Part shown: positions 24,119 through 36,891 of the stretch, one piece after another
How positions within the stretch are numbered: position 1 is the first letter of the stretch
Layout of the letters: each line of letters starts with the position of its first letter
DNA from: an uncultured Saprospiraceae bacterium
GTDB lineage: Bacteria > Bacteroidota > Bacteroidia > Chitinophagales > Saprospiraceae
Assembly: GCA_937944245.1 (NCBI GenBank)
Contig: CALDYY010000046.1
Coordinates: 1-37,349, forward strand
Length of the DNA stretch: 37,349 bases
Direction of reading: 5' to 3'
Program-made: the position numbers and the translations under genes
The notes under the pieces: model-generated
Database searches by the model: none
What the model was told of the DNA's origin: nothing
Seen by the model: the letters and a program-made list of their open reading frames with translations, nothing else

Positions 24119-25756
24119 TTAACTTTGCTCGCGAATAGCTTCTAACCCTTCTCTCAATAACTGTTGCAAAGGCATTTTTGAGGTACAAACAAATTCGCAC
24201 AATGCAACGTCTTCTTCTGTTAACTCTAATAAACCTAAGCCTTCCATACGCTCTAAATCATTGGTCATTATAGCCTTCATCAAAGGCTGCACTAATATGT
24301 CCATTGGCATCACTTGCTCATAGTCTGTAGTTACCACAAATGCCCTCTTTTCTCCGTGTGTATTGGTGTTTGCCTTAAATTTCTGTTCTGGGAACAAAAA
24401 ATTTGGAAAAGTATTGGAAATAGATGGTCGCGGTGCCAAAGGCAATAACCAACCAAACAATTCATAATCATCTCCCTCCTCAATTACCGTTACTTGGTCA
24501 TCATAGTAATTTAAGAACTGTTTTTCTGACTTTTGCTTTCCAGAAAGTACATCCCCAGAAATGATACGAATGTGATCGTTTGCTAGATTATCTTTAAGCA
24601 ATTCTGAGATGTTGGCACCGATATATGTTTTAACATATTTTGGCTCTTTCAATTCTGCTCCTGTTAGAGCTACAATCCTAGAAGCATCAAAACGATTTTC
24701 CAAAAACAGTGCACCCAGCGTGATAACACCCTGAACATCTAAAGTCCATACTTTATCTTTTGCGCTAATGGGCTTAATGTGATGGATTTGTACCCCAACA
24801 TTGCCCGCTGGATGTTTACCTTTAAAATAGACTTTTTCTACACCTTGCGCATCTCGGAATGCAGGTGAAGGTAATTGTCTTCCATTTAAGCCTAGATAAA
24901 CCTTACCATTAGTCAATTTATTGAGCACATCCAAACCTTTTTGAAAAGATTTTTCTCTTCCCGCTACCAAAACGTTACTGTCTGGTGCTAGCGGTGCGGA
25001 GTCAAAAGTGCTGATAAAAATATCTCTAGGTACGACATCTGATTCTGCTACTAAATCAAATGGACGCTGACGAAGCATTGTCCAAGCACCAGATTCCAAT
25101 AAATAATGTACCAGTTCCTCTCTGCTGCTATTTTCTAAGTCAAATGCAGGGAATACTTTATAGGTTATTTCTGCATCCGATAAAATAACAACTTCGTTAA
25201 TAGCACGCTTTGCAGCTCTATTGATAGCAACTATCTCACCGCTTACAGGAGCAACATATTTGATTTCGGGTCTTTTTTTGTCAAAAAACAATTCTTCGCC
25301 TGCTTGTACTTTTTGTCCAATCTCTACCACTAGTTTTGGAATGGGCGACATACCAATAAAATTTTGAGGTTGCACCGCAAAGGAACGCACTGATATGTTC
25401 TGAACAACACCTTTTGCCTCTCCCTCCAACAAAATATCGTGTCCTTTTCTTAATTTTTTTACTTCTTGACCTTTTAAAAAAGACGGCTGATTGCTAGTAC
25501 CTACTATTTCATTCCATTTTGGAAATATAGAAACATTTACAGCCTCTGTATCCACCCCCACAGTCTTAGCTTGCATTGCTAGGAAGCTGTCTGCTACTTG
25601 AATCACAAAAAATAAGGCAATGAAACCCACCAAACCGATAATGGCGTAAGTAATCCAGTTGGCACCGTCCAGTAATCCCGGTGTTTGCGCAAATGCTTGG
25701 TTAGCTAGAGAAACCCAAATAAACACAAGAGAAATCTTAATCCCTAATTTTTTCAT
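24119..25756 (-). CDS. nqrA: NqrA with an N-terminal signal and membrane-anchor extension
   Basis: The 545-residue protein contains the whole of NqrA from about residue 102 onward (RKGHDILLEGEAKG, then PVSGEIVAINRAAKRA and QVQGVITLGALF-like core), a part matching the usual 446-residue subunit. NqrA is the cytosolic subunit implicated in quinone binding. In front of it are about 100 extra residues: a signal-peptide-like start (1-23, ending QAFA), a hydrophobic segment at about 34-55 (WITYAIIGLVGFIALFFVIQ) and a polar linker. If the signal peptide is cleaved, the segment would cross from outside to inside and leave the NqrA core in the cytoplasm, which agrees with its known site. No in-frame ATG with an NqrA-like start exists near residue 100, so the extension is probably real. 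First gene of the operon. Confidence 0.93.
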   Translation of the reverse strand: MKKLGIKISLVFIWVSLANQAFAQTPGLLDGANWITYAIIGLVGFIALFFVIQVADSFLAMQAKTVGVDTEAVNVSIFPKWNEIVGTSNQPSFLKGQEVKKLRKGHDILLEGEAKGVVQNISVRSFAVQPQNFIGMSPIPKLVVEIGQKVQAGEELFFDKKRPEIKYVAPVSGEIVAINRAAKRAINEVVILSDAEITYKVFPAFDLENSSREELVHYLLESGAWTMLRQRPFDLVAESDVVPRDIFISTFDSAPLAPDSNVLVAGREKSFQKGLDVLNKLTNGKVYLGLNGRQLPSPAFRDAQGVEKVYFKGKHPAGNVGVQIHHIKPISAKDKVWTLDVQGVITLGALFLENRFDASRIVALTGAELKEPKYVKTYIGANISELLKDNLANDHIRIISGDVLSGKQKSEKQFLNYYDDQVTVIEEGDDYELFGWLLPLAPRPSISNTFPNFLFPEQKFKANTNTHGEKRAFVVTTDYEQVMPMDILVQPLMKAIMTNDLERMEGLGLLELTEEDVALCEFVCTSKMPLQQLLREGLEAIREQS

Positions 25757-29125: not shown

Positions 29126-29156
29126 GTTAATTTTTGAGGATGGGTTCTAGGTATTC

Positions 29157-29181
29157 GGTGTTGGGTTTGAGGTGTTGGGTT
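29157..29181 (+). repeat. Tandem pair of GGTGTTGGGTT
   Basis: Two exact 11-base copies (29157-29167 and 29171-29181) are separated by TGA, just after the recQ stop. The stretch is unusually G/T-rich for this DNA. Its function is unknown. Confidence 0.6.
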
Positions 29182-29301
29182 ATATTTTTAAAATCTTCGA
29201 TACTTGACAGTATCTGGCTTAAATCTTGGACAGGCATTTAGTAAAATTTCAAAAAAAATTAAATTTTTAAAAACCAAATGAATTATGCTTCTCGTAAATG
29301 G

Positions 29302-29400
29302 GGTAACTGATGAATAATACAATTACTTTCACTTTGATTGTAAGTGAAATACAAATAGCAATTTAGTCTATTTGTATTAAATTCAAAGAAATCAGTTATC
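29302..29400 (+). promoter_or_regulatory. Structured leader or small palindromic element upstream of the barrel-FAS1 pair
   Basis: The 99-base segment can fold as a three-way junction. The outer helix is GGTAACTGAT (29302-29311) with ATCAGTTATC (29391-29400), ten pairs with one G-U. Inside are TTTCACTT (29327-29334) / AAGTGAAA (29342-29349) and AATACAAATAG (29348-29358) / CTATTTGTATT (29368-29378), the latter an 11-base perfect repeat; the two share two bases. It ends 34 bases before the ATG at 29435. It may be a cis-regulatory RNA, or a tiny palindromic repeat element with terminal inverted repeats. It matches no riboswitch that I recognise. Confidence 0.5.
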
Positions 29401-29434
29401 AAAAAATATCTATAATCTAAAACGTATTTTTTTT

Positions 29435-30313
29435 ATGCAAAAAAATGGTCTTTTAGGCACATTGGTGCTTATGTTACTGTGCTTTTCGATGCAAGCACAA
29501 AGCCCACTAAGTGGATTTATGAATGGAAAAGGGAACGGAGCTATTGCAGTTTCTCAATCGGTAGAGCAATATGATGAAGTTTTGCTTGTACCCAACGATG
29601 CTAAAGGTGTACCCGTTTTTGAAGAAGTGGAACTTAACAGCACTTCTATTTATGCTTCTTACGGTATCAGCGACCGCTTGGATGTAGTGATGGGTTTGCC
29701 TTACATCAAAACAACAGGAAATGCAAGCGAAGCCGTATTAAACCGATTAGGATTTGAAAACACCAGAAGCGGTATTCAAGACCTTTCCCTATTTGTAAAG
29801 TACAATCCATTTAACATTCAGATGGGTGAAAGTAACTTGAATTTCTTAATTGGCGCAGGTGTAAGAACGCCACTTGGCGACTACAAAGTGGATGAAGGGC
29901 TGCAATCTATTTTAGCTATTGGCAACCGAGCCACCAGTTTAAATGGTTTAGCGATTGCTCAACTACGCACACCGTCAGGTATTTTCTTGACAACACAGGC
30001 AGGTTATAGCCTCCGTAACAATGAAGTTCCGAATGCATTATTAGGAGAAATCAAATTGGGTTATGCTGGTAGTCGCATCTATGCAGATGTGTGGTATGCT
30101 GGTCAGGTATCCAATGGTGGCGTAAACATCTTGGGCGAAGGTTTTGTAGGCTTTTTCCCGGCTACTGATGTAACTTACACTCGTGCAGGTGCAAGTGTTT
30201 ATGTGCCAATTGTTGGTGGTTTTGGGATTTCTGGTGGCATTAATCAATATCTTACAGGACGTAACATCGGTAAATCTACTGGCTATTTTGGTAGCTTGGT
30301 ATTGAATTTCTAA
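29435..30313 (+). CDS. Outer-membrane beta-barrel protein (transporter-like, MetA-pathway-type)
   Basis: The 292-residue product has a signal peptide (about 1-22, ending MQAQS) and a series of alternating amphipathic strands such as STSIYASYGISDRLDVVMGLPYI and GFGISGGINQYLTGRN, ending GSLVLNF with a terminal Phe as in barrel proteins. The pattern resembles the putative phenol-degradation MetA transporter group of outer-membrane proteins, but the family assignment is tentative. The double-FAS1 lipoprotein gene follows after 62 bases, probably in the same transcript, and a structured leader precedes it. Likely outer membrane; substrate unknown. Confidence 0.75.
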   Translation: MQKNGLLGTLVLMLLCFSMQAQSPLSGFMNGKGNGAIAVSQSVEQYDEVLLVPNDAKGVPVFEEVELNSTSIYASYGISDRLDVVMGLPYIKTTGNASEAVLNRLGFENTRSGIQDLSLFVKYNPFNIQMGESNLNFLIGAGVRTPLGDYKVDEGLQSILAIGNRATSLNGLAIAQLRTPSGIFLTTQAGYSLRNNEVPNALLGEIKLGYAGSRIYADVWYAGQVSNGGVNILGEGFVGFFPATDVTYTRAGASVYVPIVGGFGISGGINQYLTGRNIGKSTGYFGSLVLNF

Positions 30314-30375: not shown

Positions 30376-31365
30376 ATGTTATTCAGTAAAAGAATTTTTC
30401 TGGCAGTATTATCTGCTGTTGTTATATTTTCACTGTCTTCTTGCGAAAAAGAAGATGAGAATTTACTACCCACTATTGCTTCCATTGCAGTCACTAACGG
30501 TGATTTCAGCACACTAGAAGCTGCTGCTATACAAGGTGGCGTAGCCGTAGTGCTTTCCAATCCTAATCCAAACGACCCATCAGGTGCATATACTGTATTT
30601 GCTCCTACCAATGATGCTTTTGCTCGATTAGGGTTGAATAATGCAGATGCTCTAACCGTATTAAATGACGGTTTTCTAACCAGTACATTATTATATCATG
30701 TTTCCAACGGTAATCTGAATGGCAATACCATTATGCCTGGCATGACTTCTGGTTCTGCTTTAGGACCAAACCGTAGATTTATCAGAAGAGGAAATGACCT
30801 TTACATCAACGGCTCAAAAATATTAGCTACTGATGTTAAAGCAGACAATGGAACAGTACACGTCATTGACAAAGTGCTATTGGCGACAGGGGCAGACATT
30901 GTACAATCGGCATTAGCCTTGAAAAATGCTCAAGTGTTTGTTGTTCCTGAACTTTCTTTCTTAGTAGAAGCATTATTATATGCAGAGTTAGCAGGTGCTT
31001 TAGTCGCAACACCTGAAGGTAGTTCTTTCACTGTGTTTGCACCAACGGATGCTGCTTTCATGCAGTTGGGTAAAGATTTGGGTGTACCACTCACTGTGCC
31101 TGCTGACGTGCGAAAGTTGCCAAAAGATGTAGTAACCGCAGTCTTGTTGAATCATGTAATTGCAGATGGTGGCAAATTCACTTCTGAAATGAATGGTGGT
31201 GTAGTATCACCACTTGGAGGTACTAATCTTACACTTGGAGCATTCAATAACGGAACGCTTACTATAAGAGGAAACGGAAATAGTAATCTTGCAAACATGG
31301 TTATTCCAGATGTATTAACAACTAATGGTGTTGTTCATGTTATTGACAGAGTATTGCTTCCATAG
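30376..31365 (+). CDS. Lipoprotein with two fasciclin (FAS1) domains
   Basis: The 329-residue product has a lipobox SLSSC with C23. Two FAS1 domains follow, at about 32-172 and 178-329. Each has the H1 motif (YTVFAPTNDAFARLG and FTVFAPTDAAFMQLG), the central YHV/NHV and the closing GTVHVIDKVLL or GVVHVIDRVLLP. FAS1 domains mediate adhesion or protein contacts on cell surfaces. The lipid anchor suggests an outer-membrane or surface location. It is the second gene after the barrel protein and ends at an intrinsic terminator, so the two form a two-gene unit; a joint surface complex is a reasonable guess. Confidence 0.93.
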   Translation: MLFSKRIFLAVLSAVVIFSLSSCEKEDENLLPTIASIAVTNGDFSTLEAAAIQGGVAVVLSNPNPNDPSGAYTVFAPTNDAFARLGLNNADALTVLNDGFLTSTLLYHVSNGNLNGNTIMPGMTSGSALGPNRRFIRRGNDLYINGSKILATDVKADNGTVHVIDKVLLATGADIVQSALALKNAQVFVVPELSFLVEALLYAELAGALVATPEGSSFTVFAPTDAAFMQLGKDLGVPLTVPADVRKLPKDVVTAVLLNHVIADGGKFTSEMNGGVVSPLGGTNLTLGAFNNGTLTIRGNGNSNLANMVIPDVLTTNGVVHVIDRVLLP

Positions 31366-31421
31366 TCATATTATAAACAAGCAAAATCAATCAGAGTAAA
31401 ATAGTTGTGTAATTAATCTTT

Positions 31422-31457
31422 GATGTCGGATAGCTTTTGGCTTCCGACATCTTTTTT
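31422..31457 (+). terminator. Intrinsic terminator after the FAS1 gene
   Basis: GATGTCGGA (31422-31430) and TCCGACATC (31443-31451) pair perfectly, AGC/GCT extend the helix inward, and six T follow (31452-31457). The T run is on the plus strand only. Confidence 0.88.
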
Positions 31458-31459
31458 GT

Positions 31460-31954
31460 TTATCCTTTTACTGATTTTATTAGAAAGAACATTATTGGTA
31501 GGAATATCAACCCCATTACTAAAAATATAAACCATGCGCCAAGTCCATCTTTTTGACCGTTCGCAGTTTGGATGGTTTGAAATACAATTAATCCAAAAAT
31601 AATAACGATAGCAAGTTTTAAATATCGAATCATTCTGGTTGCATTCGTGTATTGCATCAATGCGTTAGTCTTGGTGATTGGTGTTGGATAATTCAAAACA
31701 TGAGGAAACCTATTCAAAATAGTTGATGCAACAAATAAAATAGTTGCTATAAATGGTAAAGCTAAGATGTGATTTTTACTTCCGAATCTATCTGCTGCTC
31801 CCGATAAGTCGTAATGGACAGGAATAATGTCTGGTAAATTATTGTAATTCATCACCGTAAATGCCCAAACTGTTAATAATGAAATCCATCCTAACGCTTC
31901 CACTATTTTATCCGCTGGCGATAGTTTTAATTTGATGATGGGTCTTGGCTGCAT
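31460..31954 (-). CDS. DUF1648-domain membrane protein
   Basis: The 164-residue protein has four predicted membrane segments (about 18-36, 63-81, 109-127 and 138-158). The loop after the first contains LPDIIPVHYDLSGAADRFGSKN, the DUF1648 signature found at the N-terminus of SdpI-like immunity proteins and in stand-alone membrane proteins. The role is unknown. It lies downstream of the beta-oxidation gene on the same strand, with a 66-base spacer, and its stop is 3 bases from the end of the FAS1 terminator. Confidence 0.82.
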   Translation of the reverse strand: MQPRPIIKLKLSPADKIVEALGWISLLTVWAFTVMNYNNLPDIIPVHYDLSGAADRFGSKNHILALPFIATILFVASTILNRFPHVLNYPTPITKTNALMQYTNATRMIRYLKLAIVIIFGLIVFQTIQTANGQKDGLGAWFIFLVMGLIFLPIMFFLIKSVKG

Positions 31955-36792: not shown

Positions 36793-36799
36793 TACTTAG

Positions 36800-36882
36800 T
36801 GGGCAACGACCAGCTCCCTTTGAACCCCCCCAGGTCAGAAATGAAGCAAGGGTAGGAGGTCGTAGTAGGTGTGTTTGCCCCT
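36800..36882 (+). ncRNA. ffs: Signal recognition particle RNA, small bacterial type
   Basis: The RNA is closed by GGGCAA (36801-36806) and TTTGCCC (36874-36880), with inner ACGACC/GGTCGT pairing. The apical domain has the SRP core AGGTCAG (36832-36838), followed by AAATGA and then AGCAAGGG, in the places where the family has the symmetric and asymmetric loops that bind Ffh. It would bind Ffh and direct nascent membrane proteins to the translocon. The exact ends are estimated. The perfect promoter in front and T run behind support it strongly. Confidence 0.9.
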
Positions 36883-36891
36883 TATTTTTTC
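36881..36891 (+). terminator. T tract ending the SRP RNA
   Basis: CTTATTTTTT directly follows the closing helix GGGCAA/TTTGCCC of the SRP RNA, so that helix plus the T run can act as an intrinsic terminator. Confidence 0.6.

What the first reader, a model, noticed from the sequence alone, without database searches (positions are those of the whole stretch)
29302..29400. Folded 99-base leader before the beta-barrel/FAS1 pair
Seen: a ten-pair outer helix closes around two nested stem-loops (eight and 11 pairs), together a three-way junction ending 34 bases before the ATG. The inner two share two bases, so alternative pairings are possible, as in switches. Alternatively the ten-base ends are terminal inverted repeats of a small mobile palindromic element; no clear target duplication was seen.
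Basis: partly seen in the sequence, partly recalled or inferred. Interest (0 to 1): 0.62.

Follow-up and report, generated by a model that had tools for sequence, protein, structure and literature searches.

The report
Folded leader behind a conserved promoter
The folded stretch is real but was seen only in this one genome; what its relatives share is a promoter-like element just ahead of it, so the fold is most likely an ordinary structured start of a messenger RNA rather than a conserved switch or a mobile element.

Summary
The fold at 29302-29400 is real: a 10-pair outer helix around hairpins of 8 and 11 pairs that share two bases, z -4.3 to -4.5. It is not unique in the window: five other places score about as well or better, and both strands fold alike. 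No second copy was found in its genome or in three congeners. The nearest relative with the gene pair (78% identical) has an unrelated leader of about 290 nt. Eight ortholog leaders run from 29 to 294 nt; the window's folds best (z -3.78, next -2.99, the rest -1.78 to +1.85).

Conserved instead is AACC-N17-CGTA at 29272-29296, by its form an ECF-sigma promoter. A[AT]CC-N17-CGTA precedes 9 of 13 orthologs, only 1 of 5 in the later set; a looser, unspecific form precedes 13 of 13. A two-box search without a preset pattern recovers it. It would start transcription near 29301-29306, the first bases of the fold. The fold would then be the mRNA's 5' end, at most a stabilising stem. No terminator, conservation or covariation supports a switch.

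The parts
29265..29300 (+). upstream block shared with sister species G001/L009: TTTAAAAACCAAAT ... CGTAAATG
   Evidence: pairwise alignment; pattern
29272..29296 (+). proposed ECF-sigma-type promoter, AACC (29272-29275) - 17 nt - CGTA (29293-29296)
   Evidence: sigma class inferred (CGT -10 box of SM6 promoters, PMC9723704, passages seen)
29301..29306 (+). inferred transcription start region
   Evidence: inference from the distance to the CGTA box; no RNA data
29302..29400 (+). folded leader segment, three-way junction
29302..29311 (+). outer helix, 5' arm (pairs with 29391-29400)
29391..29400 (+). outer helix, 3' arm
29327..29349 (+). hairpin 1, 8 pairs (6 in the energy minimum)
29348..29378 (+). 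hairpin 2, 11 pairs, shares 29348-29349 with hairpin 1
29310..29366 (+). 18-codon ATG reading frame inside the fold; length not beyond chance
   Evidence: 14.5% of 2000 shuffles have one as long
29401..29434 (+). A/T-rich spacer with T8 before the ATG; no terminator-like site; the T-tract tends to pair with A-tracts on either side
29435..30313 (+). 292-aa protein, no family match at a cut-off; low-confidence model rich in long beta strands (an outer-membrane barrel is possible, not shown)
30376..31365 (+). FAS1 (fasciclin, PF02469) protein, partner gene

Best explanation
The stretch is the 5' end of the mRNA of an operon for a beta-strand-rich protein and a FAS1 protein. Transcription starts at an ECF-sigma-type promoter (AACC-N17-CGTA, 29272-29296), recurrent before orthologs of the operon, at about 29301-29306. 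The RNA therefore begins at or within the outer helix and folds as drawn, with a 34-nt spacer before the ATG. The fold itself is a lineage-specific filling of a variable leader. If it does anything, it works passively as a 5'-terminal stem that slows decay of the mRNA from its 5' end, not as a ligand or temperature switch. Shown: the fold in silico, the recurrent promoter-like element, the absence of the fold in the relatives examined. Inferred: sigma class, start site, stabilising effect.
For: A[AT]CC-N17-CGTA begins 58-323 nt before the ATG in 8 of 8 orthologs first examined, window included (shuffle probability 0.0005-0.009 each; the pattern was phrased on this set). With five further orthologs strict matches are 9 of 13, and the looser A[AT]C[CT]-N16/17-CGT[AG] 13 of 13. 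A count of all 4-mer/gap/4-mer pairs in 11 upstream regions gives AACC-N17-CGTA and its one-base shift 6 of 11 each. All six pairs with 3 or more G/C found in 4 or more regions are frames of this element, while 40 shuffled sets peak at 3 (31 sets) or 4 (9 sets). No full primary-sigma -7 box (TAnnTTYG) lies on the plus strand of 29126-29434. [quoted passage not shown] Seventeen sigma-70 region-4 matches above cut-off exist in the genome. 5' stem-loops that stabilise mRNAs are known in other bacteria (PMC7509114, passages).
Against: No RNA data; the start site is inferred. Strict matches in the later set were only 1 of 5. The looser pattern is also found on the opposite strand in 6 of 13 regions and reversed in 1 of 13, so it is unspecific; one of the six opposite-strand matches (G102) fits the strict form. 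In the two-box count the G/C condition was my choice: without it A-rich pairs also reach 6 of 11, and one of 60 shuffled sets reaches 6. Some of the 11 regions come from the same genus. In the whole genome the near-strict pattern has 9 places against 18 for the reversed control, 8 of the 9 inside reading frames; an earlier form had 8 against 31. So no regulon is visible. No sigma gene was found in the fetched stretches around the ortholog operons with own-genome sigma queries (the one hit outside the own genome, in L082, lies near a distant paralog). Nothing here bears on mRNA stability.
Confidence: 0.55

Rival explanations
1. The fold has no function: an A/T-rich intergenic stretch whose hairpins arose by chance or by slippage between arms, tolerated because leader sequence is free to vary.
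For: Leader length and sequence vary widely in eight orthologs (29-294 nt). The other seven score z from -2.99 (G001, a 324-nt fold) to +1.85 against -3.78 for the window. Five other places in the window fold about as well or better.
Against: z -4.3 to -4.5, and 0 of 1000 shuffles with both outer helix and 11-pair hairpin.
Confidence: 0.3
2. Riboswitch, thermosensor or other cis-regulatory RNA with exclusive folds.
For: Good fold energy; two hairpins share bases; an alternative rung 29315-29325/29369-29379 exists, a small 5' hairpin forms in chains that end before 29400, and the T-tract before the ATG pairs with nearby A-tracts.
Against: No Rfam family at gathering score in the leader; seven sub-threshold matches at the relaxed threshold, best E 0.5, none credible. 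No full-length relative in 297 other family genomes, only pieces of 57 bases or fewer (three candidates scored per genome). No terminator-like site. The alternative rung is 5-7 kcal/mol worse and the ATG itself is 0.87-0.88 unpaired.
Confidence: 0.06
3. Small mobile palindromic element (terminal inverted repeats of 10 bases).
For: The outer arms are inverted; both strands fold; similarity to sister G001 falls off about where the fold begins.
Against: One copy by BLAST, terminal-repeat pattern and structure model (in one search, 150 of 276 candidates of the own genome were scored). No target duplication seen by eye. The sister's leader is not an empty site but an unrelated stretch of about 290 nt, itself found once in its genome.
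Confidence: 0.05
4. Operator DNA: the 8-7-8 dyad at 29327-29349 and the dyad at 29348-29378 bind dimeric repressors just downstream of the start.
For: Dyads are perfect and strand-symmetric.
Against: They are not seen in the seven other ortholog leaders printed (by eye). The nearest partial copy, C107:8319-8350, keeps 88% of 31 bases but by eye does not keep the dyad.
Confidence: 0.04

Closest known systems
ECF-type promoters of Bacteroidetes (motif SM6 of Flavobacterium psychrophilum, PMC9723704, passages seen)
   Same: [quoted passage not shown] listed SM6 genes include type IX secretion and outer-membrane components
   Different: the AACC box and 17-nt spacing could not be compared (the logo is a figure, not held); which sigma factor is unknown; no regulon visible in this genome
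5'-terminal stabilising stem-loops, such as that of E. coli ompA (PMC7509114, passages and reference titles seen)
   Same: stem inferred at the mRNA 5' end, upstream of a probable surface-protein gene
   Different: an A/T-rich three-way junction; no half-life data; not conserved in orthologs
Structured 5' regions of F. psychrophilum mRNAs (PMC9723704, section 19 read)
   Same: structured leader of a Bacteroidetes mRNA without Rfam match
   Different: a number of those are reported conserved outside the species, some in other genera; for this one no relative was found

Membership tests
ECF-sigma-dependent promoter | CGT-type -10 box and AAC-type -35 box at fixed spacing, recurrent before orthologous genes | tested here: met
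   strict 9 of 13 (8 of 8 in the set used to phrase it, 1 of 5 later), two-box search 6 of 11 against shuffled maxima of 3-4 under the G/C condition; 'AAC' as the -35 type is recalled
ECF-sigma-dependent promoter | dependence on a named ECF sigma factor | not testable with these tools
   17 sigma region-4 matches above cut-off in the genome, none linked to the operon
ECF-sigma-dependent promoter | mapped start a few bases after the box | not testable with these tools
   no RNA data
riboswitch / conserved cis-regulatory RNA | match to a known family | tested here: not met
riboswitch / conserved cis-regulatory RNA | conserved structure with compensatory changes | tested here: not met
   no homologous fold in the 7 other ortholog leaders, nor a full-length match in 297 other family genomes by BLAST
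riboswitch / conserved cis-regulatory RNA | expression platform (terminator or masked start) | tested here: not met
   no terminator-like site; ATG 0.87-0.88 unpaired, although the T-tract before it pairs
palindromic mobile element (MITE/REP-like) | several copies in the genome | tested here: not met
   one copy found
palindromic mobile element (MITE/REP-like) | target duplication or empty site | tested here: inconclusive
   no duplication seen; the sister has another, longer leader
5'-terminal mRNA stabiliser | stem at or within a few bases of the 5' end | tested here: inconclusive
   inferred start 29301-29306 against fold start 29302
5'-terminal mRNA stabiliser | longer half-life when present | not testable with these tools
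   no RNA data

The most novel reading that the evidence does not exclude
A lineage-specific RNA cap: a transcript from an ECF-type promoter whose first bases enter a ten-pair helix, with an 18-codon reading frame (29310-29366) inside the fold so that a ribosome on the leader would open it, coupling leader translation to the stability or translation of the operon.
Probability: 0.05. Interest if true: 0.5.

Novelty: new member of a known kind. Interest (0 to 1): 0.22.

Why it matters
It moves attention from a fold seen in one genome to a promoter-like element that recurs before a FAS1 gene pair kept together in several genera of the family, and present in divergent order in Pedobacter puniceum. 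If the element is an ECF promoter, the operon is switched on by one of the roughly 17 such sigma factors of this genome, which is testable. For the fold, the case shows that a good folding score before a gene is weak evidence for a switch when orthologs lack it.

Tried and rejected
Rfam: at gathering score the window's only match is the SRP RNA at 36798; at the relaxed threshold seven weak matches in 29126-29500, best E 0.5, none credible. Family-wide BLAST of the 99 bases: 29 of 298 genomes (own included) have matches at E <= 0.01; apart from the query itself these are pieces of 57 bases or fewer at 75-100% identity, treated as A/T-rich chance; only three candidates per genome were scored. 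Structure model built from the window alone: next best E 0.96 in G002 and 2.3 in the own genome; 150 of 205-286 candidates per genome were scored. Regulon search with promoter patterns: 8 places against 31 for the reversed control and 9 against 18, so no excess. A hit in the 3' end of a sigma gene on contig C15 lies inside that reading frame and the next gene is convergent, so it was dropped. A scan of 300 bases before the own sigma genes that the script recovered found one loose match, AACT-N17-CGTA before L103, not pursued. A 31-base partial match on C107 covers hairpin 1 but does not keep the dyad. Other promoters: no complete primary-sigma box; one sigma-70-like site at 29167-29194, where shuffles average 1.8. 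Literature in the held library: no paper has 'ECF sigma factor' with 'fasciclin', 'Bacteroidetes' and 'promoter', 'fasciclin' with 'ECF sigma' and 'singlet oxygen', 'extracytoplasmic function' with 'CGTA', 'consensus' and 'Bacteroidetes', or 'fasciclin' with 'outer membrane' and 'Saprospiraceae'. Listings led to the two papers cited. Structure of the first protein: low confidence (mean pLDDT 48.6), not searched further.

Rows dropped before the promoter count: L011 and G109/L085 (contig begins inside the gene, no upstream sequence), and 23 distant paralog loci (L014, L015, L022-L042; 26-35% identical). For eight of these I looked for a FAS1 partner and found none (L014, L015, L022/L079, L023/L080, L024/L081, L025/L082, L031/L083, L033/L084); the other 15 were not looked at. 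A wider pattern matched before 5 of the 23 (L023, L024, L031, L033, L039). In the first extraction loci on the minus strand (L016, L018, L019, L024) were read on the wrong strand; one search replaces it.

Full report
Observation. The energy minimum (-24.2 kcal/mol) keeps the 10-pair outer helix, a 6-pair version of hairpin 1 and the long hairpin 2. Against dinucleotide shuffles z is -4.28 (1 of 200 as good) or -4.51 (2 of 1000). The outer helix alone is not remarkable (40 of 300 shuffles of the intergenic stretch contain one like it), but together with an enclosed 11-pair hairpin it is (0 of 1000, tests phrased after seeing the fold). In a scan of 2980 stretches of 99 nt on both strands, 61 candidates were re-scored with 200 shuffles. 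Five other places scored below the -4.31 of the plus strand at 29301 (starts 31401, 14151, 18976, 34701, 12551); 12551, at -4.43, is weaker than the -4.51 of the exact register. By eye 18976 and 12551 look like terminator hairpins, and 14151 lies mostly in a reading frame. The minus strand of the finding folds as well as the plus strand (z -4.77).

Copies and relatives. Within the own genome (3.80 Mb, 147 contigs, 100% complete by the tool) the 145 bases 29290-29434 match only themselves at full length; the next match is 31 query bases at 88%. The pattern of the terminal arms with a 60-90 base gap occurs at this place only. A structure model finds no second credible copy in the own genome or the three congeners, with 150 candidates scored per genome. 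Of 298 family genomes 29, own included, have matches at E <= 0.01; beyond the query itself these are pieces of 57 bases or fewer (three candidates scored per genome).

Orthologs. The downstream protein has no Pfam or NCBIfam match at a curated cut-off, and its partner is a FAS1 protein. The pair is kept: FAS1 follows on the same strand in 14 of the 15 loci that hold a relative of at least 50% identity and were examined for it (window, L009, L011, L074-L078, L085; L114-L118), and it is divergent in Pedobacter puniceum (L010). The closest relative with upstream sequence (L009, the same contig as G001:C286; 78% identical) has a leader of about 290 nt without recognisable similarity to the fold. 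Its own fold score is weak for 301 nt (z -1.20) and -2.99 when taken with the first 30 coding bases. That leader was found once in its genome. The other two congeners have only 31%-identical matches.

The conserved feature. Between window and G001, similarity upstream is concentrated in a block ending at 29300, TTTAAAAACCAAAT...CGTAAATG. The spacing AACC-17-CGTA recurs before other orthologs. With A[AT]CC-N17-CGTA all 8 upstream regions of the first set match, each with a shuffle probability of 0.0005 to 0.009. In five further orthologs found later the strict form matched 1 of 5 and the looser A[AT]C[CT]-N16/17-CGT[AG] 5 of 5; two of these five (L117, L118) are close to one another. Over all 13 the strict form matches 9 and the looser 13. 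The looser form also matches 6 of 13 on the opposite strand and 1 of 13 reversed, so it carries little weight alone; one of the six (G102) fits the strict form. To lean less on a pattern of my own choosing, all 4-mer/gap/4-mer pairs (gap 10-22) were counted in 11 regions, leaving out G001 and the second G513 copy as near relatives: AACC-17-CGTA and AAAC-18-CGTA each occur in 6 of 11. The six pairs with at least three G/C that occur in four or more regions are all frames of this element; shuffled sets under the same condition reach 3 (31 of 40) or 4 (9 of 40). Without the G/C condition two A-rich pairs also occur in 6 of 11, and the shuffled maximum is 3 to 6 (6 once in 60). Some of the 11 regions are from the same genus (genera).

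Reading. A CGT box at -10 with an AAC-type box 17-18 bases upstream is the form of ECF-sigma promoters (the AAC part is recalled; the CGT box in Bacteroidetes is from PMC9723704, passages, where SM6 promoters are ascribed to ECF sigma factors). No complete primary-sigma -7 box lies on the plus strand of the intergenic stretch. By analogy the start would be about 5-10 nt after CGTA, 29301-29306, at or within the first bases of the outer helix. That gives a leader of about 130 nt, longer than the median of 24 nt reported for F. psychrophilum. Over the orthologs the distance from four bases after CGTA to the ATG runs 29, 30, 51, 63, 81, 93, 134 (window) and 294 nt, and the fold scores of leader plus 30 coding bases are, in that order, -0.01, 0.86, 1.57, 0.60, 1.85, -1.78, -3.78 and -2.99. 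A leader of such variable length and content is not a conserved regulatory RNA.

Mechanism. No terminator-like site follows the fold. The ATG is unpaired at 0.87-0.88 probability, but the T-tract just before it (29425-29432) is mostly paired, with A-tracts on either side, so the ATG sits in the loop of a small stem; some effect on initiation cannot be excluded. The two partitions of the shared bases differ by 0.8 kcal/mol and are the same shape; a competing rung costs 5-7 kcal/mol; a growing chain first forms a weak local hairpin of the 5' arm, which the outer helix displaces at 29400. This leaves a passive 5'-terminal stem, of the kind reported to protect mRNAs in other bacteria (PMC7509114, passages), or no function. 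I put the ordinary-leader reading with promoter at 0.55, of which the stabilising step is pure inference, and no function at 0.3. An 18-codon reading frame lies inside the fold but is of chance length (14.5% of 2000 shuffles).

Verdict.

Noticed in passing
window 29127-29237 (-): 36-codon minus-strand frame between recQ and the promoter (MPVQDLSQILSS...); no family above cut-off in Pfam or NCBIfam and no credible relative in the fetched loci; may be a remnant or nothing.
   Followed up: partly
window 36798-36886 (+): Bacterial small SRP RNA (RF00169, 46.4 bits against a gathering score of 40), an ordinary gene.
   Followed up: no
window 31401-31499: Lowest fold z of the re-scored stretches (-6.3 on the minus strand). 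The hairpin lies between FAS1 and the convergent DUF1648 gene, and on the plus strand a T-run follows it (by eye), so it may be the terminator of the FAS1 operon.
   Followed up: partly
L010 1756-2760 (-) and 2986-3882 (+): In Pedobacter puniceum the FAS1 and barrel genes are divergent, with ATCC-N17-CGTA before the barrel gene; a looser element (ATCT-N16-CGTA) faces FAS1.
   Followed up: partly
L115, L118 (G513) and L117 (G502): Genome G513 holds two FAS1/barrel pairs, 65% and 53% identical to the window's first protein; the second resembles the pair of G502.
   Followed up: no
window 24119-25756 (-): Frame that looks like NqrA with an N-terminal signal-like and membrane segment (recalled, not tested).
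   Followed up: no
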